Positions 1,730-59,668 of a stretch of DNA of 59,668 nt are shown in pieces. Source of the DNA: an uncultured Desulfobacteraceae bacterium (GTDB lineage Bacteria; Desulfobacterota; Desulfobacteria; Desulfobacterales; Desulfobacteraceae); contig CAJWHT010000008.1 of assembly GCA_913041495.1 (NCBI GenBank), positions 1 through 59,668 of the forward strand, given 5' to 3'. The notes beneath the pieces were generated by a model that searched no databases, was not told the origin of the DNA, and saw only the letters and a program-made list of their open reading frames with translations. The position numbers were made by a program, and so were the translations under genes. Numbering within the stretch: position 1 is the stretch's first letter; each line of letters starts with the position of its first letter.

Positions 1730-2827
1730 TTACTCGCTGTAGGTGTCCCGGATGGCTTCGAAGGCCGGGCGCAGATGGCGTATGGCTCTGAATATGTTGG
1801 GGTCCAGGTGGGGGCCGGCACATTCTTGAAGTTCCTGCCAGGCGGCTTCCGGGGAAAAGGCCTGCTTGTATGAGCGCTCAGACCGAAGGGCGTCGTAGAC
1901 GTCGGCGTAGGCCACGATGCGGCCGGGCAGGGGAATGGCATCGCCTGCCAGCCCCAAGGGATATCCGTTGCCGTCCCAGCGTTCATGGTGGGACATGGCG
2001 ATGGTGGCGGCGTATTCCCTGACCTTTGCTCCCATCTTCAGTTCCGGTGGTGTCTGGGTCTTCAGGGCGTAGAATTCCTGCATTCCCCTGGGTTTCATCA
2101 GGAGGATATCCGCCCCGATTTTGCAGTGGTGCTTCATGATTTCCATCTCCCCGGGGGTGAGCCTGCCCTGTTTGAGAAGGATACCGTCGGGGATACCTAT
2201 CTTGCCCAGGTCGTGGAGGGACGCGGTGAGAAATATCAGTTCTATTTCCCTGTCGGGCAGCCCAAGGGCCTGGGCGATCAGGCGGCTGATGTGGCTGACC
2301 CGCATGACATGGTCGCCGGTCTCCTCATCCCTGAGCTCTCCGGCCTTGGCCAGCCGCCACACCAGATCGTGGTGGAGAAATTCCAGTTCCCGGGTCCGTT
2401 TTTTTACCTTGGCTTCCAGGGTGGTGTTCTGCCGCCGCATTTTATCTTCATAGGATTTGAGGCGCAGGGCGGAAATGAGCCTGGCCACCAGGTCTTCGGG
2501 GTTGATGGGTTTGTTCAAAAGATCTGTGGCCCCGTATTCCAGGGCCCGGCGCTTGAGGGCCGTGTCCGCGTCTCCGGTGAGTACAATCACGGGGATGCGG
2601 CTGGTATGGTCTGCCTCCTGAAGGATTTCCAGAAGATCGAACCCGGATTTGCCCGGCATGTTGGCGTCGGTGACGATTACATCAATGTCATGGGCGTTGA
2701 TCTGGGTTACCGCCTCATCCACGCTTTGGGCAAAACAGAGGCGCCATTCATCCCGCCGGTGGTGCAGCATCCGCTCCACCCCTTTGAGGTAATGCGCTTC
2801 ATCATCCACAAAAAGCAGTCGATTCAT
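1730..2827 (-). CDS. Response regulator with HD-GYP c-di-GMP phosphodiesterase domain
   Basis: The 365-residue protein has an N-terminal receiver domain (acidic D8/D9, phospho-acceptor D54 in VTDANMPG, conserved K106). A short helical linker of about residues 125-155 follows, then an HD-GYP domain. The HD pair is at 205-206 (SLHDLGKIG) and HHERWDGNGYP at 280-290 carries the family signature. Known role: HD-GYP proteins hydrolyse c-di-GMP to GMP or pGpG, here probably gated by phosphorylation. All expected metal ligands visible in these motifs are kept. No sensor kinase gene is adjacent. It precedes a 164-residue hypothetical gene with a 10-base gap. Confidence 0.93.
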   Translation of the reverse strand: MNRLLFVDDEAHYLKGVERMLHHRRDEWRLCFAQSVDEAVTQINAHDIDVIVTDANMPGKSGFDLLEILQEADHTSRIPVIVLTGDADTALKRRALEYGATDLLNKPINPEDLVARLISALRLKSYEDKMRRQNTTLEAKVKKRTRELEFLHHDLVWRLAKAGELRDEETGDHVMRVSHISRLIAQALGLPDREIELIFLTASLHDLGKIGIPDGILLKQGRLTPGEMEIMKHHCKIGADILLMKPRGMQEFYALKTQTPPELKMGAKVREYAATIAMSHHERWDGNGYPLGLAGDAIPLPGRIVAYADVYDALRSERSYKQAFSPEAAWQELQECAGPHLDPNIFRAIRHLRPAFEAIRDTYSE

Positions 2828-2989
2828 GACATTCTAAGCCCTAAAACAATACCCTTTCAGCCTATAACCCAGGCGCTATTCTGACACGGTTTATCAAAGT
2901 GATCAATGAATTTTATGTGACAGGGTCAGATCGCGCACCTAAGTGGTTTTAGGCGGTGTTGTATGCACGTCCAATGACTGTCATGGCCG

Positions 2990-3886
2990 TTATTCCGCCC
3001 CGAATTCAGAGGGCTTGAGCCGGGTGAGATATTCGACCAGGGCCTTGTTTTTTTCAAAGGCCAGTTTTTCTTTTTTGATGAAGATGTTGAAGTGGTCTGC
3101 TCCGGGCTGGATGCCCGGAAAAGGGTCCACCAATATCTTTTCTGCAAGTTCACGGATAACGGTGTATTTGGGGACGAAGCCTATGCCTAAGCCGGCAATG
3201 GCACCGTTGATAATGCCCCGGATATGGTTGATCTGGACCACTTGTTTCAAGCAGGCCTGTTTGCTTTCAGGGATGGCGGTGATGAAGTGCCGCCACCAGG
3301 CCAACTGCTTGTCGTTGGAAAGGATGTTGATCCCGGAAAGGTCCTCTAAGGTGTCTATCCCGTGTTCCTTGAGAAATGCCGGAGAGGCAATGGTAACGTA
3401 TTGCTCCTGGAAGAGGTGGAAGGTTTCCAGATTCGGCAGGGCATGGGGGATGCAGTCCACGACGAGATCCACCTCATCCCTGGCTAAAGGCGTTTCCAGG
3501 TGGTGGGAAAAGTAAAAGTCCAGATGGATGTCCGGATGGGTGTCAAGAAAGTCCCGGATGTGATTGATCAGGATGGTGGTGCCGAATTCCACGGGGCTGC
3601 CCAGCCGGATGCTGACCCTGGCTTCATGCCTGTACCGGGAGACCTCCTGGTCCGCCCGTTCGATCTCGTAGAAAATCTTTTCGCAGGAGCGGTAGAGGGC
3701 GTAGCCGGCAGGGGTCAGATCCAGCACTTTGCCCTGCCGGACGATCAGGGGGGTGTCCACGGAAGCTTCCAGTTTTTTGATGGCATGGCTGACGGCAGAC
3801 TGGGTGACAAAGAGGTGTTCTGCCGCCCGGGTGAAATTTTTCACCTTTGCCAGGGTAAAAAAGGTTTTCAGGTGATAGAGATCCAT
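2990..3886 (-). CDS. LysR-family transcriptional regulator (divergent from ALDH genes)
   Basis: The product has 298 residues, normal for the family. The N-terminal winged helix-turn-helix is clear (residues 1-65: MDLYHLKTFFTLAKVKNFT, then TQSAVSHAIKKLE). The C-terminal two thirds form the periplasmic-binding-protein-like effector domain (RLGSPVEFGTT onward). It is transcribed away from the aldehyde dehydrogenase pair across a 115-base gap containing a dyad. In LysR systems this arrangement usually means control of the divergent genes with the pathway intermediate as inducer. Which ligand it binds cannot be read from the sequence. Confidence 0.92.
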   Translation of the reverse strand: MDLYHLKTFFTLAKVKNFTRAAEHLFVTQSAVSHAIKKLEASVDTPLIVRQGKVLDLTPAGYALYRSCEKIFYEIERADQEVSRYRHEARVSIRLGSPVEFGTTILINHIRDFLDTHPDIHLDFYFSHHLETPLARDEVDLVVDCIPHALPNLETFHLFQEQYVTIASPAFLKEHGIDTLEDLSGINILSNDKQLAWWRHFITAIPESKQACLKQVVQINHIRGIINGAIAGLGIGFVPKYTVIRELAEKILVDPFPGIQPGADHFNIFIKKEKLAFEKNKALVEYLTRLKPSEFGAE

Positions 3887-3900
3887 GATCAGTATGATCC

Positions 3901-3932
3901 AAATTCATGATTTCGATAAATATTATGAATTT
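3901..3932. promoter_or_regulatory. Candidate LysR operator dyad
   Basis: AAATTCAT at 3901-3908 and ATGAATTT at 3925-3932 are a perfect 8-base inverted repeat with a 16-base AT-rich spacer. It lies 15 bases upstream of the lysR start and about 70 bases before the ALDH7 start. It contains the T-N11-A type spacing typical of LysR sites. Position between divergent genes supports a shared operator. Confidence 0.45.
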
Positions 3933-4001
3933 TACTTTAGCAGTTCTGTGGTTATATTACAAGTATCCATCATCCAAACACCTGCAAAAGGAGGTTAAAC
4001 C

Positions 4002-5582
4002 ATGAAAAACGGTCTGGCGCAAAGCACCATAAATGATATTTTACATACCCTGGGAATAATCCCCATGGACGCGGGGGCGAATCCCGGCGCCACCTCCGGC
4101 AGCAGTGCGGGATGGATCGAAACAGAGGGCCCTGAACTGGTCAGCTACTCACCTGTCAACGGCCAGCCCCTGGCCAGGATCAGGACGGCCCGCCGGGAAG
4201 ATTACGAAACCCTTATGAAGCGTGCCCAAGAGGCGTTTAACACCTTCCGGATGACACCGGCCCCCAAACGGGGGGAAATGGTCCGGGAAATCGGCAATGC
4301 CCTCAGGGAAAAAAAAGATGCCCTGGGCGCCCTGATTTCCCTTGAAGCCGGTAAAATTCTGGCCGAAGGCCAGGGGGAAGTCCAGGAGATGATCGATATC
4401 GCTGATTTTTCCGTGGGGCTGAGCCGCCAGCTTTACGGCCTGACCATGCATTCCGAACGCCCGGAACACCGGATGTATGAGCAGTGGCATCCCCTTGGCA
4501 TCGTGGGGATCATCACCGCCTTTAACTTTCCTGCGGCGGTCTGGTCCTGGAATGCCCTGATCGCAGGTGTCTGCGGCGATGCCAACATGTTCAAGCCCAG
4601 CTCAAAAACGCCGCTTACCGCCATTGCCATCCAGAACATCATCGCACCGGTGGTGGATAAATTCGGGGCGGACGGTATCTTCAACATGGTGATCGGCTCC
4701 CGCACAGACGTGGGAGAACCCATGCTCCATGACCCGCGCATCCCTTTGATCTCCGCCACCGGCAGCACGGCCATGGGCAAGCATGTGGGGCAAGTTGTGG
4801 GGGGGCGTTTGGGCAAAAGCCTGCTGGAACTGGGGGGGAACAACGCCATCATCGTCACCGAGGATGCGGATATGGACATGGCCATCCGGGCCACCCTGTT
4901 CGGTGCCGTGGGCACGGCGGGCCAGCGCTGTACTTCCACCCGGCGGATCATTGTGCAGTCTTCGGTCAAAGAGACCTTTGTCAAACGTCTGGTGGCCGCT
5001 TACAAACAGGTGAAAATCGGCAATCCCCTGGATGAATCCACCCTCATGGGGCCGCTTATCGATGAAGGGGCCGCAGAAGCCATGGACCGGGCCCTTGAGG
5101 CCGTGGTGGCCCAGGGGGGAGAAATTCTGTACGGCGGGGGAAGGGCGACGTTGGACGGCCTTGAAGGCGGCAGTTACGTGATTCCGGCTGTTGTGGCTGC
5201 GGAAAACCACTACCCTGTCGTTCAGGAAGAGACCTTTGCCCCCATTCTTTATATCATCGAATATGACAGTTTCGACCAGGCCATCGACCTGCACAACGGG
5301 GTGCCCCAGGGGCTTTCCTCTGCCATATTTACAGGCTCCGTACACTACCAGGAAGGCTTTCTCTCCCACAGGGGATCGGACTGCGGCATTGCCAATGTGA
5401 ATATCGGTACCTCCGGGGCAGAGATCGGCGGTGCCTTCGGCGGGGAAAAGGAAACCGGCGGCGGCCGGGAGTCCGGCTCAGACGCCTGGAAGATTTACAT
5501 GAGACGACAGACCAACACCATTAACTGGGGCAGGGAGCTTCCCCTGGCCCAGGGAATTGAATTTAATATCAGTGAGGATTAA
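4002..5582 (+). CDS. amaB: ALDH7-type aldehyde dehydrogenase (alpha-aminoadipate semialdehyde dehydrogenase-like)
   Basis: The 526-residue protein is an NAD(P)-dependent aldehyde dehydrogenase of the ALDH7 group. N175 (TAFNFP), general base E276 in the ALDH7-specific ELGGNNA, and nucleophile C310 in GTAGQRCTSTRR are all present. ALDH7 enzymes oxidise alpha-aminoadipate-6-semialdehyde (in equilibrium with piperideine-6-carboxylate) in lysine breakdown, and related aldehydes. The start has a strong AAGGAGG. It is directly followed by an ALDH4 gene after one base. The symbol is by subfamily resemblance only; substrate is not proven by sequence. An N-terminal extension of about 40 residues precedes the conserved domain. 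Confidence 0.85.
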   Translation: MKNGLAQSTINDILHTLGIIPMDAGANPGATSGSSAGWIETEGPELVSYSPVNGQPLARIRTARREDYETLMKRAQEAFNTFRMTPAPKRGEMVREIGNALREKKDALGALISLEAGKILAEGQGEVQEMIDIADFSVGLSRQLYGLTMHSERPEHRMYEQWHPLGIVGIITAFNFPAAVWSWNALIAGVCGDANMFKPSSKTPLTAIAIQNIIAPVVDKFGADGIFNMVIGSRTDVGEPMLHDPRIPLISATGSTAMGKHVGQVVGGRLGKSLLELGGNNAIIVTEDADMDMAIRATLFGAVGTAGQRCTSTRRIIVQSSVKETFVKRLVAAYKQVKIGNPLDESTLMGPLIDEGAAEAMDRALEAVVAQGGEILYGGGRATLDGLEGGSYVIPAVVAAENHYPVVQEETFAPILYIIEYDSFDQAIDLHNGVPQGLSSAIFTGSVHYQEGFLSHRGSDCGIANVNIGTSGAEIGGAFGGEKETGGGRESGSDAWKIYMRRQTNTINWGRELPLAQGIEFNISED

Positions 5583-5583
5583 A

Positions 5584-7215
5584 ATGACCAACAGCGTATA
5601 TACATTACCCGCCCCCTACAATGAGCCCGTTAAAGACTATGCGCCGGGCAGCCCGGAACGGGCCGCCCTCAAGGCCGAACTCACCCGCCAGCTAAATGAT
5701 TCAGTGGAGGTGCCGGTGATCATTAACGGACAGGCGGTCCGTACCGGCAACGTCCGGGAAATCGTCTGCCCCCACGACCACAGCAGAGCGCTGGGCACCT
5801 TCCACATGGCCGGAGAAGATGAGATCCATGCGGCCATTGATGCGGCAATGGCCGCAAAACCTTTCTGGGAAGCCATGGACTGGCAGGAGCGGGCGGCCAT
5901 CTTCCTGAAAGCCGCCGATCTGATGTCCCAGAAATATACGGCAAAGATCAACGCCGCAACCATGCTGGGACAGTCCAAGAACGCTTTCCAGGCGGAAATC
6001 GACAGTACCTGTGAACTGGCGGATTTCCTCCGGTTCAACGTCAAGTTCATGGAGGAGATTTATACGGGCCAGCCCCGGTCCGGCCGCGGGATCTGGAACC
6101 GCACCGAATACCGTCCCCTGGAGGGCTTTATTTTTGCCCTGAGCCCCTTTAATTTCACCGCCATCGCAGGCAATCTGAGTTCCGCCCCTGCCATGATGGG
6201 CAACACCGTGGTATGGAAACCCGCATCCACCGCCGTGCTGTCCGGTTATTTCATCATGGAGATCTTTAAGGAGGCCGGCCTGCCCGACGGCGTGATCAAC
6301 TTTATCCCGGGCCGCGGCTCCCAGATCGGCAGAATCCTGCTTTCCCACAGGGACCTTGCAGGGATTCACTTTACGGGCTCCACCGGGGTGTTCCAGACCC
6401 TGTGGCAGAAAACCGGTGAACATATCGACACCTACACATCCTACCCCAGGATTGTGGGAGAAACCGGCGGCAAAGATTATATCTTTGTCCATCCGTCCGC
6501 TGATGTGACCCAGGCCGCCACTGCGGCTGTCCGGGGAGCATTTGAATACCAGGGACAAAAATGTTCCGCCTGCTCCCGTCTCTACCTGCCTAAATCCCTC
6601 TGGCCTGCGTTTGAAGAACGCTTGGGCGAACAGATCAAGGAAATCAAGATGGGACCGGTAACGGATTTTTCCAACTTCGTGAACGCCGTGATCGATGAAA
6701 AGGCCTTCGACACTATCGCAGGCTACATCGAACGGGCCGAAAACTCGGAAGATGCCGAGGTGATCATCGGCGGTGAGCGAGATAAATCCCGGGGGTATTA
6801 CATCCAGCCCACGGTGATTCTGGCCAAGGAACCGGACTACGAAACCATGGCCGAGGAGATTTTCGGCCCGGTGCTTACCATTTTTGTTTATCCTGATGAT
6901 GATCTTGAGGCCACCCTGGACCTTTTGGACAGCACCTCCGCCTATGCCCTCACCGGTGCGATCTTTGCCAGGGACCGCGGTGTGGTCAACCATCTGATGG
7001 CACGCCTGACCCATACGGCCGGCAATTTTTACATCAACGATAAGCCCACCGGTGCCGTGGTGGGGCAGCAGCCATTCGGCGGTTCCCGGAAAAGCGGGAC
7101 CAACGACAAGGCCGGCAGCCCCTTAAACCTTCTGCGATGGACATCCCCTAGAACCATCAAAGAAACCTTTGTCCCCCCTGAAGATTTCAGATATCCCTTT
7201 ATGGACGAATCCTGA
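5584..7215 (+). CDS. ALDH4-type 1-pyrroline-5-carboxylate dehydrogenase
   Basis: The chosen ATG at 5584 comes one base after the preceding stop, with GTGAGG overlapping the end of that gene. A start 9 codons earlier in frame would overlap the ALDH7 gene without benefit. The 543-residue product matches the length of stand-alone ALDH4 enzymes. It has SPFNFTAIAGNL (cofactor loop), E293 in GETGGKD and catalytic C327 in YQGQKCSACSR. ALDH4 converts glutamate-5-semialdehyde to glutamate in proline, arginine and ornithine breakdown. No proline dehydrogenase gene is adjacent. Pairing with ALDH7 under one LysR suggests joint use in amino acid catabolism. Confidence 0.88.
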   Translation: MTNSVYTLPAPYNEPVKDYAPGSPERAALKAELTRQLNDSVEVPVIINGQAVRTGNVREIVCPHDHSRALGTFHMAGEDEIHAAIDAAMAAKPFWEAMDWQERAAIFLKAADLMSQKYTAKINAATMLGQSKNAFQAEIDSTCELADFLRFNVKFMEEIYTGQPRSGRGIWNRTEYRPLEGFIFALSPFNFTAIAGNLSSAPAMMGNTVVWKPASTAVLSGYFIMEIFKEAGLPDGVINFIPGRGSQIGRILLSHRDLAGIHFTGSTGVFQTLWQKTGEHIDTYTSYPRIVGETGGKDYIFVHPSADVTQAATAAVRGAFEYQGQKCSACSRLYLPKSLWPAFEERLGEQIKEIKMGPVTDFSNFVNAVIDEKAFDTIAGYIERAENSEDAEVIIGGERDKSRGYYIQPTVILAKEPDYETMAEEIFGPVLTIFVYPDDDLEATLDLLDSTSAYALTGAIFARDRGVVNHLMARLTHTAGNFYINDKPTGAVVGQQPFGGSRKSGTNDKAGSPLNLLRWTSPRTIKETFVPPEDFRYPFMDES

Positions 7216-7234
7216 TTCCCCACACATCAGGCAT

Positions 7235-7286
7235 ATACCGTAAACGGCAGCCGCAGGTTTTACTTGTATTCTGCCTTTTACGGTAT
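7235..7286 (+). terminator. Long-stem hairpin after ALDH operon
   Basis: ATACCGTAAACGGCAG (7235-7250) pairs with CTGCCTTTTACGGTAT (7271-7286) with one mismatch and a 20-base loop. It sits 20 bases after the ALDH4 stop. There is only a short T-rich tail, so it may act as a weak terminator or an mRNA-stabilising hairpin. Confidence 0.5.
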
Positions 7287-7318
7287 TATGCTTTTCGGAT
7301 TGTTTCCTAAATACAGGG

Positions 7319-8434
7319 GTGACCGTGGCGAATCTGAAGCAGGACATATCCCCGCGGGTGTTGGATGATTTGAAGAAGAGGTCACTGGCGGGGGTTTTTA
7401 CTTACACCATAGCGCTTTGCGTGGTGCTTTTTCCTGACGGCTATTACTACCGTAATCCCCAGATGTCCAATTGGTTTCTCTGGCTGATCACAGGTATCTG
7501 TGTGCTTCGGCTGATCCAGCTTTTTATTGAATCAAAATTCATATCCCGGCCCACCCGGCTGAATACCTGCCTATTCTGGGTGGGGGTGGTTGTGACCGGT
7601 TTGATATGGGGGGTATTGTCTGCCATTGTCATGGTGCAGCCCGGAGAGGAAAACGTCAAACTGATGATGCTGGTATGCACCATCGGCATCTGCTCGGGCG
7701 GATGTTCGGCATTCAGCCCTGATTTGCGCCTTGCGCTGGTGTTCAATGTGTTTATCCTATGGCCGAGTATTTTTGCCCTGGCCACGGTGACGGAGAATTT
7801 TCCGCTTGTCAGTCTTCTGGTGATGTTTTCCACCTATATGGCCTTTATGTCCAGCCGCCAGAACACCGAGTACTGGACTGCCCTGAACAATGAGACCCTG
7901 CTGAAAGAAAAAACCCGGGACCTTGAAAAACTATCGAACATGGACGGGCTCACCGGGCTTTACAACCGCAGGTTTTTTGATACGGCATTCAAGCTGGCCT
8001 GGCAGCGGGCATTGCGGAACCGTCAGCGGCTTTCCCTGATCATCTGCGATATTGACTATTTCAAACAGGTGAATGACGCCCATGGCCATCAGGCCGGTGA
8101 CGAGTTCCTCAGAACCATGGCCCATACCCTGACCCAGGTGTTCAAACGCCAGACCGATATCGTGGCCAGATACGGTGGTGAAGAATTTGTGGTGCTCATT
8201 GAAGATGCCGGTGACGGACGGGCGGTGGAGCTTTCGGAGCGGTTCCGGCGGCAGATGGCAGACAACCGGGTGCGCTTTGAGGCCCGTACCATCCGGGCAA
8301 CCGTTTCCTTAGGGGTGGCCGAAGAGGTACCGGCAGCGGACACACAAAGAGAATCCCTGCTTGCCCGGGCCGATGCCATGCTCTACAAGGCCAAGCAGAG
8401 CGGCCGGAACCGCGTGGCCGTCTATACGGATTGA
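7319..8434 (+). CDS. Membrane-bound diguanylate cyclase (GGDEF)
   Basis: The N-terminal half (residues 22-178) has about six hydrophobic membrane segments without a recognised sensor family. A short helical linker (LLKEKTRDLEKL) leads to a GGDEF domain from about residue 205. The active-site motif is GGEEF at 286-290. The inhibitory-site motif RxxD (R277-D280) sits at the correct five-residue distance, so product feedback inhibition is expected. Substrate contacts DIDYFKQVND and HGHQAGDEFL are intact. The enzyme makes c-di-GMP from two GTP, opposing the HD-GYP protein upstream. The start is GTG at 7319; GTG at 7325 is an alternative. Confidence 0.93.
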   Translation: MTVANLKQDISPRVLDDLKKRSLAGVFTYTIALCVVLFPDGYYYRNPQMSNWFLWLITGICVLRLIQLFIESKFISRPTRLNTCLFWVGVVVTGLIWGVLSAIVMVQPGEENVKLMMLVCTIGICSGGCSAFSPDLRLALVFNVFILWPSIFALATVTENFPLVSLLVMFSTYMAFMSSRQNTEYWTALNNETLLKEKTRDLEKLSNMDGLTGLYNRRFFDTAFKLAWQRALRNRQRLSLIICDIDYFKQVNDAHGHQAGDEFLRTMAHTLTQVFKRQTDIVARYGGEEFVVLIEDAGDGRAVELSERFRRQMADNRVRFEARTIRATVSLGVAEEVPAADTQRESLLARADAMLYKAKQSGRNRVAVYTD

Positions 8435-54829: not shown

Positions 54830-54857
54830 ATATTAAGCCTGTTGCTTATTGTCTTTA

Positions 54858-54902
54858 TGGCGCGCCCGGCGCGATTCGAACACGCGGCCTACGGATTAGA
54901 AG
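54858..54902 (-). other. Attachment-site remnant: 3' half of tRNA-Arg(UCU)
   Basis: On the minus strand this reads from the anticodon loop CTTCTAA (anticodon TCT, complement at 54898-54900) through the anticodon-stem 3' strand. A T-arm (GCGTG-TTCGAAT-CGCGC) and acceptor strand CGGGCGC follow, then G and CCA at 54858-54860. The 5' half is absent: the sequence upstream shows no D-arm or matching acceptor. A tRNA 3' half starting at the anticodon loop is the common attB core of tyrosine-recombinase elements. The intact tRNA should lie beyond the island. Confidence 0.75.
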
Positions 54903-55060: not shown

Positions 55061-55106
55061 TGCCAGTTGCGGGAATTGAACCCGTAGCCATTCCTTATTC
55101 ATGCGT
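55061..55106 (-). repeat. tRNA T-arm/acceptor-like sequence B
   Basis: On the minus strand it reads ACGGG-TTCAATT-CCCGC followed by an acceptor-like AACTGGCA, as in a tRNA or tmRNA 3' end; no other tRNA arms are present. The stretch 55070-55106 matches 55547-55583 in 32 of 37 positions, including ATTCATGCGT beyond the T-arm. It is likely an att-like remnant. Confidence 0.5.
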
Positions 55107-55539: not shown

Positions 55540-55583
55540 GTGGACTCGGGATTTGAACCCGCATCCTTTCCCTATTCATGCGT
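55535..55583 (-). repeat. tRNA T-arm/acceptor-like sequence C
   Basis: Minus-strand reading gives GCGGG-TTCAAAT-CCCGA and an acceptor-like GTCCACTT. It begins at the stop codon of the 64-residue gene. It matches sequence B (32 of 37) and, on its other side, sequence D (24 of 32 from ATTAAGTG). No complete tRNA is present around it. The 195 bases after it hold no gene. Confidence 0.5.
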
Positions 55584-55779: not shown

Positions 55780-56283
55780 GTGAACAATTTGGCAAAAACA
55801 TTAGCAACGAAGCCTATTACTATAAAAACTGCCAATGAATTCATTAAAGATTATCATAGACATCACCGTCCAACCATTAGAAATAGTGGGCGCTGGGCTT
55901 TGGCTGCTATTGATCTAAACGGAGAAATGGTTGGTGTCGTGATAGCTGGCAATCCTGTTTCGGCAACTTATATGGATGGCTATACACTTGAGTTAACCAG
56001 ACTCTGTGTGAAAGAGATCGCTCCAAAAGGGACATGTAGTTTTTTGTTAAGTAAATGTTGCTCTATTTGGCGGACTATGGGAGGACAGAGGGTAATCACA
56101 TACACTTTAGCGACTGAATCAGGAGCATCGTTAAAAGGTGCTGGTTGGAAATTATCTGGAACAGTGAAGCCTCATAAAAGATGGACAAATAAAAATAAAG
56201 TTGATGGGCTCGACCGAACCCATTTAGAAATTTATGAGTTAATGAAACATCGCTGGGAAAAAGAATTGAAGGGTGTTGTCTGA
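55780..56283 (+). CDS. XF1762-family-like protein of mobile elements
   Basis: The start is GTG at 55780, with GGAG six bases upstream. The 167-residue protein resembles the XF1762 family found on phages and integrative elements: FIKDYHRHHRPTIRNSGRWA, then YTLELTRLCVKEIAPKGTCS, ITYTLATESGASLKGAGWKL. The fold is thought to be GNAT-like, but no activity is established. It is the first of three closely packed genes (1-base overlap with the next). AT-rich codon use fits recent transfer. Confidence 0.75.
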   Translation: MNNLAKTLATKPITIKTANEFIKDYHRHHRPTIRNSGRWALAAIDLNGEMVGVVIAGNPVSATYMDGYTLELTRLCVKEIAPKGTCSFLLSKCCSIWRTMGGQRVITYTLATESGASLKGAGWKLSGTVKPHKRWTNKNKVDGLDRTHLEIYELMKHRWEKELKGVV

Positions 56284-57293
56284 TGGATACAATATGTGCA
56301 TTTAGTTCTGATAGTCGAGAACTTTATAAAGCTGATATTTATCGTGTTTTAGCCTTGCCTAAAAATCACATCGTGCATTTCCGGTACAAAAAGATATACG
56401 TTGATGACTACCTGTTACAGAATCCTAAAAAATTAAAGAAACAAAGTGTTGCCATTTTTTTTACCCACGGAAATAATTTGGGTACTGATGAGAATACCTT
56501 CCAGCACTTTTCTGTCAGGTGGGCCACCATAACCACCACTGAATTTAGCTTAGAGACAGATGTATTTCATATTTATATGAAGTTGGGTGATTTTTGTAAC
56601 GTCCGAGTTGATTCTGGAAATTCTGATGAAAAGATACCTCCAACTAAATTTTTATCAAAATTAAACTGCACCGAAGTTGGTGAAGGAAATAACTGGCAAT
56701 CAAGAATCTTAGCTATTAAAAACTACTTCCCGAAAATCACCTTTATACACTTGAAAGAGATTCGAAACGGATGGAGAGGTAAATGGATTCATTATCAAAA
56801 TAGTAAAAAATCTTGTTACTACAACCTAACTCACGGCAATAGATACATACTAAAGTTAGCGGTATCGAATCCCGATGCGTCGAATACCAAAATTGAAATA
56901 TCTGACAGTAGCGAAGAGATAACGATTAACTGTATAAATCCACTTGAATCATCAATCCAATTTGATGATCATGATATTTCTATTTCAGTAAAAACATTGC
57001 AAGTTTTTAAGCAAGCATCATTATTAGAATTTAAGCCATCAAAAAAAGAGAGTGATGCCGATGAATACAAAGTTCTTGGAGAGTACTCAACGAACATTGA
57101 ACTAAATTTAAAATTGAGCCTTAAAAGGCCACTAATTTTTGGATTGTTCAGTACAATGGCATTTTGGTCGGTTCTGTTGGCAAGGCCAATGTCAAGTTCT
57201 GTAAATTGGCCATCTGAATCCGTTTTAGTGATTTCAACATTGTTATTTTATTTATCTAGCAGTTCGCTGTTTTTTTGGTTTAACAAGAAATAA
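56283..57293 (+). CDS. Unknown protein with C-terminal membrane hairpin, 336 aa
   Basis: The ATG overlaps the previous stop by one base. Residues 1-275 look soluble and rich in beta-strands (HIVHFRYKKIYVDDYLLQ, QSVAIFFTHGNNLGTDENTF, YYNLTHGNRYILKLAVSN). The last 55 residues form two membrane helices (FGLFSTMAFWSVLLA and VLVISTLLFYLSSSSLFFW) separated by a short loop, with KRPLIF before and FNKK after. The large domain would therefore be anchored to the inner membrane by its C-terminus. No family recognised. It is between the XF1762-like and DUF4365 genes, with a 14-base gap to the latter. Confidence 0.65.
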   Translation: MDTICAFSSDSRELYKADIYRVLALPKNHIVHFRYKKIYVDDYLLQNPKKLKKQSVAIFFTHGNNLGTDENTFQHFSVRWATITTTEFSLETDVFHIYMKLGDFCNVRVDSGNSDEKIPPTKFLSKLNCTEVGEGNNWQSRILAIKNYFPKITFIHLKEIRNGWRGKWIHYQNSKKSCYYNLTHGNRYILKLAVSNPDASNTKIEISDSSEEITINCINPLESSIQFDDHDISISVKTLQVFKQASLLEFKPSKKESDADEYKVLGEYSTNIELNLKLSLKRPLIFGLFSTMAFWSVLLARPMSSSVNWPSESVLVISTLLFYLSSSSLFFWFNKK

Positions 57294-57307: not shown

Positions 57308-58636
57308 ATGAAAAGACCGCGTTCTCATAGAATTGAAGCTGAAAGTCTGAGATTCGTACAAAATGTGTTTGAAAGAGAGCCTTTTTGTTGGCATGCTAGG
57401 GAGGTAGGTGCCAGAGACGATTATGGCCATGATTTAGAGGTAGAACTCGCAGATTTAGATGAACTCACAGGAAAAATTTTTAGGGTTCAAGTTAAAGCAA
57501 CTGATTTTGTAAAAATACGTCAAAAAGATAATGTTATACTCTTTGAAGTATATACTAATCATTTAAAACGTTGGTTTGAAATATCACTTTCTATGCCAAT
57601 GCTGCTTATACTTTATGATTCAAAAAATGAGTGTGCATACTATAAAAACATAGGAAAATGGGTTCAAAAAAAAATATTAAAAATAGGTGGCATTAAGTTT
57701 TTAGAGAAACAAAAATCGTACACAATAACTATAGATCCTGAAGATAATTTAGAAAATTCGTTAAAGAGAATTCAAATTCTTGTTTCTGATCATTTTGAAA
57801 AATTGAAATTTCTGTTTTCTCCATCTATTGATCCGTATTCTTCTCAAAAGCCCAAACTAAAATCGGAGACTACAGCAATAAAAAATAGAACTCGATTTGA
57901 AATTTCCAAAAAAATTACAATTCGTAAAAAACTGGATAGATTGAATATAAGAGATCAAGGTGAACGAGATACAGCAGTAGCTTTTGCGGTTTTAGGTGCA
58001 ATCGAAGTTATGTTACAATGCAAAATGATTTCATTAAGGCTTTCTCCTCAACATTTATATTATAAGTGTAAAACAATAGATAATTATAAAAATATAGATG
58101 GCACCTGGGTAGACTGCGCGTTACAAATTATGAACAACTATGGTGTTTGTTTAGATCAAGATTGGCCATATAATCCAAAACTTAATCCTAAAAATTTGGC
58201 ACAAGGTCCGGAACCTAAAAACCTACCGATCGCGGCTAAAATAACTGGTTATCATGCTTTTAATCCGACAGATATAGATTTTGCACACTATTTGCTCGAC
58301 AGAAATATTCCGCTAATAGCAACAATACCTGCATATAGATCATGGCTGCAATATAATAGTTGGGTTGAAAAAACCGGAGAAATTAACCTTCCCCTGCCAG
58401 CTGACTTGGAGAAAGGTTTATTAGGATACCATGTGATATGTATTGTCGATTATAATAAGGCCGATCAATCTTTTATTTTTAAAAATAGCTGGGGGAAAAA
58501 ATGGGCGGAAAATGGAAGTTACGGCCCGGGAATAGGTCAATTGCCTTGGAGTTATATTGCACAATATGCAACCGAGATTCATTTTATAGAGAACGTTTTC
58601 TTGAATATAAACGTCTCTGATCCAGGGTCACGTTAA
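57308..58636 (+). CDS. DUF4365 nuclease-like domain fused to a papain-like domain lacking the catalytic Cys
   Basis: The 442-residue protein starts with a DUF4365-like domain (about 1-150). RDDYGHDLEVEL carries D42 and E44, and FRVQVKATD carries Q61 and K63, the D-E-QxK pattern of PD-(D/E)xK nucleases. After a basic linker (190-212) comes a C1 (papain) peptidase fold. RDQGERDTAVAFAV (215-228) aligns with the bacterial signature RDQGxRGTCxAFA, but the nucleophile is Ala223. The His (H375 in GYHVICIVDY) and Asn (N393 in FKNSWG) are kept. The fold is probably retained without protease activity. Last gene of the AT-rich three-gene operon. Confidence 0.82.
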   Translation: MKRPRSHRIEAESLRFVQNVFEREPFCWHAREVGARDDYGHDLEVELADLDELTGKIFRVQVKATDFVKIRQKDNVILFEVYTNHLKRWFEISLSMPMLLILYDSKNECAYYKNIGKWVQKKILKIGGIKFLEKQKSYTITIDPEDNLENSLKRIQILVSDHFEKLKFLFSPSIDPYSSQKPKLKSETTAIKNRTRFEISKKITIRKKLDRLNIRDQGERDTAVAFAVLGAIEVMLQCKMISLRLSPQHLYYKCKTIDNYKNIDGTWVDCALQIMNNYGVCLDQDWPYNPKLNPKNLAQGPEPKNLPIAAKITGYHAFNPTDIDFAHYLLDRNIPLIATIPAYRSWLQYNSWVEKTGEINLPLPADLEKGLLGYHVICIVDYNKADQSFIFKNSWGKKWAENGSYGPGIGQLPWSYIAQYATEIHFIENVFLNINVSDPGSR

Positions 58637-58642
58637 TAACAC

Positions 58643-58674
58643 ATTAAGTGAACCTGGGAGTTAAACCAGCTGCC
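58643..58674 (-). repeat. tRNA T-arm/acceptor-like sequence D
   Basis: It starts six bases after the stop of the DUF4365 fusion gene and aligns gap-free with sequence C (24 of 32). On the minus strand CTGG-TTTAACTC-CCAG could form a T-arm-like stem followed by GTTCACTT. It is more decayed than A to C. The remaining gap to the integrase (58675-58887) holds no gene. Confidence 0.4.
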
Positions 58675-58887
58675 GACCATATCCACTAAGGGTTTTCAAT
58701 GTCAGTGATCCACGCCTGATCCATTTCACACGCTTATCCACCTTTCTTATAAGAAACAAATCCATATCCGCAAGCCGCTAATAAACTGATTGTGAATCAG
58801 GTACCAGATATGAAATAAAAGTTCTTTGTTTGCAACCTGCACGGTTGAATGTTGTTTACTGTTGAATTTGAAGAATAGGAGCGGACA

Positions 58888-59668
58888 TTGGAAAACCACA
58901 TCAAAGACTTTTTGTTTCATTGCAAATTTGAAAAAAACCTTAGTACCAAAACTCTTGCGGCCTATGAAATAGACCTGAGACAATTTAATTCATTTTTTGC
59001 AAAAGGGAAAAGGGATCCCCTTGTCCGAGATGTGGATAAATATGTCCTAAAACAATACCTGGAAACAATATCCCCGAAATTCAAGCCCAAAACCCTAAAA
59101 CGAAAACTTGCCTCACTCAAAGCCTTTTTCAACTACATGCAATTTGAGGATGAGATCGATATCAATCCGTTCAACAAGGTAAAAATCAAAATCAAAGAAG
59201 GGAAACGAGTCCCCAGGACAATAGACCCAAGAATAATCAAACGGCTTTACAGATATCTCTATGATAAAAAGGAATGCCTTGAACCAGAATCTTACGCTTA
59301 CCAGATCATTGTCCGGGATATCGCCGTCCTTGAACTGTTGTTCTCAACAGGCCTCAGGGTATCAGAGCTGTCCCACCTGAAGACATCATCTTTGAGCCTG
59401 ACAAAATCCACAATCAGGATAACGGGTAAAGGCAATAAAGAAAGGCTCATCCCCATTTGCAGCGCAGATACACGGGAAGCTTTGAACAGTTATTTTAAGC
59501 TTTACCGCAAACGGATCGAAAATGCCGAATTCTTTTTTTTGAACAGATTCGACCGACGCCTCTCAGAACAGTCCATAAGGTTCATGATAAAAAAATACAT
59601 GAACAACTTAAACGTAAGCGATGAATTAACCCCATCTACTGCTGAGTCCAGCCATGGGATAGTATGCT
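58888..59668 (+). CDS. Tyrosine recombinase/integrase (XerC-like), partial
   Basis: The start is TTG at 58888, with AGGAG seven bases upstream; the frame stays open to the window edge (260 codons). The N-terminal SAM-like DNA-binding domain is clear (TKTLAAYEIDLRQFNSFFAK, LKRKLASLKAFFNYMQ), then the catalytic domain with the first active-site Arg in FSTGLRVSELSHL and the Lys strand ITGKGNKERLIPI. After DELTP the expected HxxRH box is replaced by STAESSHGIV, so resemblance stops near residue 249. The gene may be interrupted or the sequence shifted there. It probably mobilises the island. Confidence 0.8.
   Translation, partial: MENHIKDFLFHCKFEKNLSTKTLAAYEIDLRQFNSFFAKGKRDPLVRDVDKYVLKQYLETISPKFKPKTLKRKLASLKAFFNYMQFEDEIDINPFNKVKIKIKEGKRVPRTIDPRIIKRLYRYLYDKKECLEPESYAYQIIVRDIAVLELLFSTGLRVSELSHLKTSSLSLTKSTIRITGKGNKERLIPICSADTREALNSYFKLYRKRIENAEFFFLNRFDRRLSEQSIRFMIKKYMNNLNVSDELTPSTAESSHGIVC

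What the first reader, a model, noticed from the sequence alone, without database searches (positions are those of the whole stretch)
57308..58636. Nuclease-like DUF4365 fused to a papain-like domain with Cys-to-Ala at the active site
Seen in the sequence: D42/E44 and QVK (61-63) in the first domain, and a C1-peptidase fold where the nucleophile position in RDTAVAFA is Ala223 while H375 and N393 remain. Known: the bacterial C1 signature is QGxRGTCxAFA, so the loss is at one exact residue. Inference: the papain fold is used as a sensor or peptide-binding module that controls a nuclease, in a mobile island. This would fit an anti-phage or anti-plasmid effector that is not, to my knowledge, described.
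Basis: partly seen in the sequence, partly recalled or inferred. Interest (0 to 1): 0.82.

Follow-up and report, generated by a model that had tools for sequence, protein, structure and literature searches.

The report
Nuclease fused to dead papain domain
A gene on what looks like a mobile DNA island in a bacterium joins a DNA-cutting domain of a kind used in anti-virus defence to a papain-type protease domain that has lost its cutting residue, perhaps so that the dead protease now works as a switch or sensor for the DNA cutter.

Summary

It apparently lies at one end of an island integrated in tRNA-Arg: 56-bp identical repeat, low GC. Upstream are two genes that recur as a pair in prophages.

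No second fusion was found: 0 of 259 papain ORFs carry the nuclease motif; 0 of 40 other loci carry a papain match. At the Cys position, 180 of 184 readable distinct domains were scored Cys; one of the other four is Cys on inspection, three truly lack it and form a separate clade.

Best reading: an effector nuclease controlled by a pseudo-protease sensor. Inferred, not tested; one sequence cannot show selection. New variant of a known kind.

The parts
57308..58636 (+). DUF4365-pseudo-papain fusion gene, 442 aa
   Evidence: ORF; Pfam
57335..57757 (+). DUF4365 (DREN-type) nuclease domain; first base of codon: D38 57419, G40 57425, D42 57431, Q61 57488, K63 57494
   Evidence: Pfam match; invariant columns; codons
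57917..58516 (+). Pseudo-papain (Peptidase_C1) domain; first base of codon: Q217 57956, Ala223 57974, H375 58430, N393 58484
55780..56283 (+). Mom-like / XF1762-family protein, first gene of the likely operon
   Evidence: NCBIfam NF045478 E 3.8e-46; phrog_1384 Mom-like E 1.7e-35
56283..57293 (+). 336-aa protein of phrog_30351 with C-terminal hydrophobic stretches (by reading); start overlaps the Mom-like stop by one base, stop lies 14 bases before the fusion gene
   Evidence: phrog_30351 E 1.3e-80, residues 1-336; pair recurs in prophages
54847..54902 (-). att-type repeat: 3' part of tRNA-Arg(UCU) and its 3' flank, identical over 56 bp to contig C116 8063-8118, where the tRNA is intact (8074-8150)
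58888..59668 (+). XerC/D-like tyrosine recombinase, cut by the end of the contig
   Evidence: Pfam Phage_integrase E 3.2e-17; NCBIfam XerC/XerD below their cut-offs
55070..55106 (.). 37-bp tRNA-3'-end-like repeat, copy 1 (copy 2 at 55547-55583, 86% identical)
   Evidence: resemblance to a tRNA 3' end is by reading, no tRNA called

Best explanation
The gene encodes a two-part effector carried as cargo on a tRNA-Arg integrated island. The N-terminal DUF4365 domain is a metal-dependent, probably sequence-unspecific nuclease (shown: motif and homology; inferred: activity). It is kept off at rest, and the C-terminal pseudo-papain is the switch: the fold and the Gln, His and Asn of the groove are kept but it cannot cut, so it would bind a peptide, an exposed protein segment or a protease inhibitor that appears on infection by a rival phage or element, and binding would free or multimerise the nuclease domain, which then degrades DNA (inferred). 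The two upstream genes are the host element's accessory pair and are probably co-transcribed (inferred from spacing); whether they take part is open.
For: DUF4365 motif intact; its five residues are the invariant columns in 10 of 10 aligned domains. In NbaSPARDA D41/Q60/K62 are catalytic, the lone domain shows no detectable activity, and activity comes with tetramerisation on the filament (PMC12205087, passages). DUF4365 proteins in the same order of bacteria are fused to other modules: among 10 scanned of 28 other loci, nSTAND6 NTPase in one, Ras/Roc in two, TPR in one, no named control domain in the rest. The papain half is an intact reading frame with a confident fold and keeps 37 of 53 columns identical in five relatives, including Q217, H375, N393; its Ala codon is three bases from Cys. 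L082, a Cys-bearing papain in the same part of the tree, is in a defence-like operon with an ImmA/IrrE-chagasin fusion gene and a SIR2 gene. Inactive caspase and trypsin domains as regulators or peptide binders in bacterial conflict systems are described (PMC7159879, passages). Island with att-type repeat.
Against: Only one sequence of this architecture was found, so neither conservation nor purifying selection can be shown. The papain half also differs from its relatives in 16 of 53 otherwise identical columns, some of them next to the active site (Tyr374) and in a four-column gap, and it has a very long branch (1.76), which decay would give as well as a new role. The upstream pair occurs without this gene in the six other loci seen, of which four show the next gene. 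No ligand, expression or activity is known. The PADLOC match (short-pAgo REase, E 1.1e-10) covers only the nuclease half. The DUF4365 model is unusable. The placement of P0001 and of L082 in the tree is marked as unsure by the program because both branches are long.
Confidence: 0.45

Rival explanations
1. The pseudo-papain is only an oligomerisation or structural scaffold (or an anchor to a partner such as the phrog_30351 protein) and senses nothing by its groove; the trigger comes from elsewhere.
For: DREN domains are activated by multimerisation in SPARDA; other dead papain folds are scaffolds or binding domains, e.g. menin, Rad4 family (PMC10318531, passages).
Against: Q217, H375 and N393 of the groove are kept, which a pure scaffold need not do.
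Confidence: 0.22
2. The gene is a restriction-like partner of the Mom-like modifier: the modifier marks island DNA, the DUF4365 nuclease cuts unmarked DNA, and the pseudo-papain is a docking part.
For: Tight gene order Mom-like, phrog_30351, fusion gene, with a one-base overlap and a 14-base gap; Mom-like family match.
Against: The Mom-like/phrog_30351 pair recurs without a DUF4365 gene beside it in 4 of 4 loci where the next gene is visible, and no DUF4365 match lies in any of the six pair loci fetched.
Confidence: 0.12
3. A decaying or neutral fusion: a papain domain captured by chance whose catalytic residue was then lost without consequence.
For: Single occurrence; long branch; 16 of 53 conserved columns changed.
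Against: No stop or frameshift in 442 codons; nuclease motif intact; confident papain fold; Q, H and N of the site kept; three-base change at the nucleophile.
Confidence: 0.18

Closest known systems
DREN/DUF4365-APAZ of SPARDA (short prokaryotic Argonaute systems)
   Same: N-terminal DUF4365 nuclease with the D..QxK site at nearly the same residue numbers, followed by a C-terminal control module; NbaSPARDA protein also about 442 aa (passages)
   Different: C-terminal module is a pseudo-papain, not APAZ; no Argonaute gene in the visible neighbourhood
Xylellain-type bacterial C1 peptidases (PDB 3OIS) and the C1 sub-family of L177, L017, L018, L022, L023
   Different: Nucleophile Cys replaced by Ala; fused to a nuclease
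Inactive peptidase domains in NTP-dependent conflict systems (PMC7159879, passages)
   Same: Dead peptidase proposed as regulator or peptide binder in a conflict protein
   Different: Those are caspase and trypsin folds in MoxR-vWA systems; no such gene was seen in the stretch here
Gated nuclease plus protease pairs of Hachiman, AVAST and canu loci (PMC12799240, passages)
   Same: Nuclease controlled by a protease-type partner
   Different: Metallo-beta-lactamase nuclease activated by cleavage with a live trypsin-like or caspase protease; here the protease is dead and in the same chain

Membership tests
DUF4365 (DREN) effector nucleases | Pfam PF14280 above gathering score | tested here: met
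   72.9 bits against 24.3
DUF4365 (DREN) effector nucleases | DxGxD...QxK motif | tested here: met
   D38, G40, D42, Q61, K63 invariant in 10 of 10 aligned domains; motif as given in PMC11297309 (passage)
DUF4365 (DREN) effector nucleases | PD-(D/E)xK fold | tested here: inconclusive
   Model with a 3-row alignment has mean pLDDT 44.3; not trustworthy, no fold search run on it
DUF4365 (DREN) effector nucleases | Nuclease activity | not testable with these tools
   needs bench work
SPARDA | APAZ domain behind DUF4365 | tested here: not met
   Residues 204-403 are Peptidase_C1
SPARDA | Short Argonaute gene next to it | tested here: not met
   Adjacent genes are Mom-like, phrog_30351 and an integrase; the contig ends about 1 kb downstream of the gene, so the rest of the island was not seen
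Peptidase family C1 (active) | Papain fold | tested here: met
Peptidase family C1 (active) | Catalytic Cys | tested here: not met
   Ala223
Peptidase family C1 (active) | Oxyanion Gln, His and Asn | tested here: met
   Q217, H375, N393
MoxR-vWA (VMAP-type) conflict systems with dead peptidases | MoxR ATPase and vWA genes in the locus | tested here: inconclusive
   Not among the genes scanned at 53.9-59.7 kb; rest of the island not seen
Restriction-modification with a Mom-like modifier | Modifier and nuclease kept together in relatives | tested here: not met
   No DUF4365 match in any of six other pair loci, next gene visible in 4

The most novel reading that the evidence does not exclude
The pseudo-papain is a decoy: it imitates a conflict-system papain protease so that a rival phage's protease inhibitor (chagasin-like) or other anti-defence factor binds it, and that binding releases the nuclease. 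The fusion would be a guard against counter-defence, a control principle that I saw described for no DUF4365 nuclease in the passages read.
Probability: 0.12. Interest if true: 0.85.

Novelty: new variant of a known kind. Interest (0 to 1): 0.56.

Why it matters
DUF4365 nucleases draw interest because their collateral activity is proposed for diagnostics (PMC12205087, passages), and the switch that turns the domain on is worked out, in what I read, only for the Argonaute-bound form. A naturally fused pseudo-protease as the switch would add a new kind of sensor and a one-chain system in which to test how a dead protease controls a nuclease. It also suggests that some bacterial papain-type proteases, such as those beside chagasin-type inhibitor and SIR2 genes, belong to conflict systems.

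Tried and rejected
DUF4365-side scans of viral contigs gave one and two loci. The contig scans work by short patterns and capped lists, so a divergent fusion could be missed.

L024, L095, L159 and L160 had matches reaching into the nuclease half. Pfam finds no DUF4365 in L024 or L095; none of the 259 papain ORFs, these four among the loci used, has DxGxD...QxK or a match to the DUF4365 half.

One search lists L297 as Ala at the Cys position; printing the protein shows an ordinary DQGSLGSCTANA, so that row is a misalignment. Five further rows cannot be read there. The four Ala and one Thr at the His position were not checked one by one (the Thr is L179).

I first counted the columns kept by P0001 from an alignment that contains it, which is circular. 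The recount on the five relatives alone gives 37 of 53. I lowered the best explanation from 0.5 to 0.45 and raised decay from 0.13 to 0.18 for that.

Two DUF4365 rows put in the first structural alignment landed in the wrong half and were dropped, so the full-length model has no relatives for its nuclease half (10-residue blocks of pLDDT 26-59 over 1-170). The DUF4365 domain alone gave pLDDT 44.3.

A chagasin-type inhibitor in the own genome as a possible ligand: none at E 0.001. A crude motif script for chagasin-like neighbours of papain genes gave three loci, one of them (L091) confirmed by Pfam, and missed the one in L082, so it is no count. Promoter scan no better than shuffles (16 against mean 14.7); terminator-like sites 7 against mean 3.1, sd 1.9. 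Rfam gave no tRNA in the island; its best hit (CsrC) is far below the gathering score.

Literature: ten papers list DUF4365 (passages seen in four). Papain with conflict or defence terms (listings; passages in three papers). XF1762: no paper. Mom with nuclease and prophage (listing). Vibrio satellites (listing). No listing or passage that I saw names a DUF4365-papain fusion; subscription journals and preprints are not covered.

Full report
What is there. The ORF at 57308-58636 (+) is 442 codons long with an ATG start. Pfam gives DUF4365 at residues 10-150 (E 3.5e-20) and Peptidase_C1 at 204-403 (E 2.4e-15), both above the curated cut-offs; NCBIfam gives no match.

Nuclease half. In an alignment of ten DUF4365 domains, nine of them from other genomes of the same order, the invariant columns are D38, G40, D42, Q61 and K63. 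The same motif is given for the family in PMC11297309, where changing three of four conserved residues singly led to loss of effect (passage, cut at that point). In NbaSPARDA the catalytic residues are D41, Q60 and K62, the isolated domain shows no detectable activity, and filament-driven tetramers are the active form (PMC12205087, passages). In TmuRE Q62 and K64 were named as potential active-site residues and changed together (PMC10810196, passages). By sequence alone phmmer also finds a solved DUF4365 protein, 9qbq (E 3.2e-4). The domain should therefore be a nuclease; this is homology, not a test. My own models of this half are not usable. In the order sample, 25 of 379 genomes, the own one included, have a DUF4365 match, 22 over the cut-off. 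Of 28 other loci from that search I scanned ten proteins: one has an nSTAND6 NTPase, two Ras/Roc, one TPR repeats, one a SEC-C motif.

No second fusion. Samples of 59, 395 and 389 genomes (overlapping), plasmids, phages and viral contigs and genome contigs gave, where they gave anything, matches to the papain half; the contig lists were capped at the best 80. None of 259 papain ORFs (189 distinct domains) carries DxGxD...QxK. None of 40 further loci (31 from the DUF4365 searches, 7 of the gene pair, 2 of the own contig C116; some overlap one another) has a papain match. The architecture is rare in what was searched.

Where it sits. GC falls from about 0.53 to 0.32-0.40 right of 55 kb. A 56-bp stretch at 54847-54902 is identical to contig C116 8063-8118, where it is the 3' part of an intact tRNA-Arg(UCU) and its flank. 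On the island side of that tRNA, C116 holds, by my reading of the ORFs, an integrase (6890-7984), a CHAT-NTPase-TPR protein (2390-5368; TPR also by PADLOC) and a MazF/PemK-like gene (558-917). The simplest reading is one island whose two ends lie on C8 and C116. The contigs do not join, so its length, and that both ends are one element, are not shown.

Neighbours. Directly upstream are a Mom-like XF1762-family gene and a 336-aa gene of phrog_30351; these two overlap by one base, and the second ends 14 bases before the fusion gene. The two recur as a pair in a Vinavirales prophage of Vibrio beside its integrase, in genome G557 between an integrase and an HTH gene, and in four viral contigs. In the order sample the 336-aa gene was found in 2 of 340 genomes, the own one included. 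No DUF4365 match lies in any of those six loci. So the fusion gene is an extra gene beside a prophage-type pair.

How it most likely works. Shown: intact nuclease motif, dead papain domain that keeps its fold and the other site residues, att-type repeat. Inferred: the papain half holds the nuclease off and senses a protein ligand through its groove; ligand binding frees or multimerises the nuclease, which cuts DNA. Precedents are the activation of DREN by multimerisation and dead peptidase domains proposed as dominant-negative regulators or peptide binders in conflict systems (PMC7159879, passages). From relatives: in L082 a Cys-bearing papain gene follows an ImmA/IrrE-chagasin fusion gene and is followed by an unknown gene and a SIR2-like gene; a Priestia plasmid has a papain gene followed by a chagasin-type (I42) inhibitor gene. 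No chagasin-type gene was found in the window's own genome.

Verdict. Real, uncommon in what was searched, and a new variant of a known kind (DUF4365 effector with a new C-terminal module). The main limits are that it is a single sequence and that a good part of the papain pattern has changed, so decay stays a serious rival.

Noticed in passing
L024 339-1649, L074 663-1766, L179 1480-2715: A separate family of pseudo-papains with Ser, Val or Thr in place of the Cys, each behind an N-terminal hydrophobic segment and a likely coiled coil (by reading); one clade with 100/97 support across Bacteroidota, Acidobacteriota and the window's order. Function unknown.
   Followed up: partly
L082 2928-7257: Operon-like run in a Dehalococcoidia contig: ImmA/IrrE peptidase fused to a chagasin-type (I42) inhibitor, papain protease with Cys, unknown 255-aa gene, SIR2-like gene, 344-aa gene; looks like a defence-type system.
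   Followed up: partly
window 55780-57293: Mom-like plus phrog_30351 gene pair, a two-gene prophage module seen beside or near integrases in a Vibrio Vinavirales prophage, G557 and viral contigs. No paper in the library holds the word XF1762.
   Followed up: partly
window 55070-55106, 55547-55583 and about 58645-58700: tRNA-3'-end-like fragments (by reading) that bracket gene segments; the first two are 86% identical and their shared pattern has no other match in the genome at up to 3 mismatches. Could be remnants of earlier integrations.
   Followed up: partly
L316 (G000:C116) 558-917, 2390-5368, 6890-7984: Likely opposite end of the tRNA-Arg island: integrase, CHAT-NTPase-TPR protein and MazF/PemK-like gene, named by reading.
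   Followed up: partly
L018, L023, L030, L035, L046, L054, L094: Chloroflexota proteins of 931-1025 aa with an N-terminal-side papain domain; L023 also has a C25-peptidase match just under the Pfam cut-off. Possible multi-protease conflict proteins.
   Followed up: no
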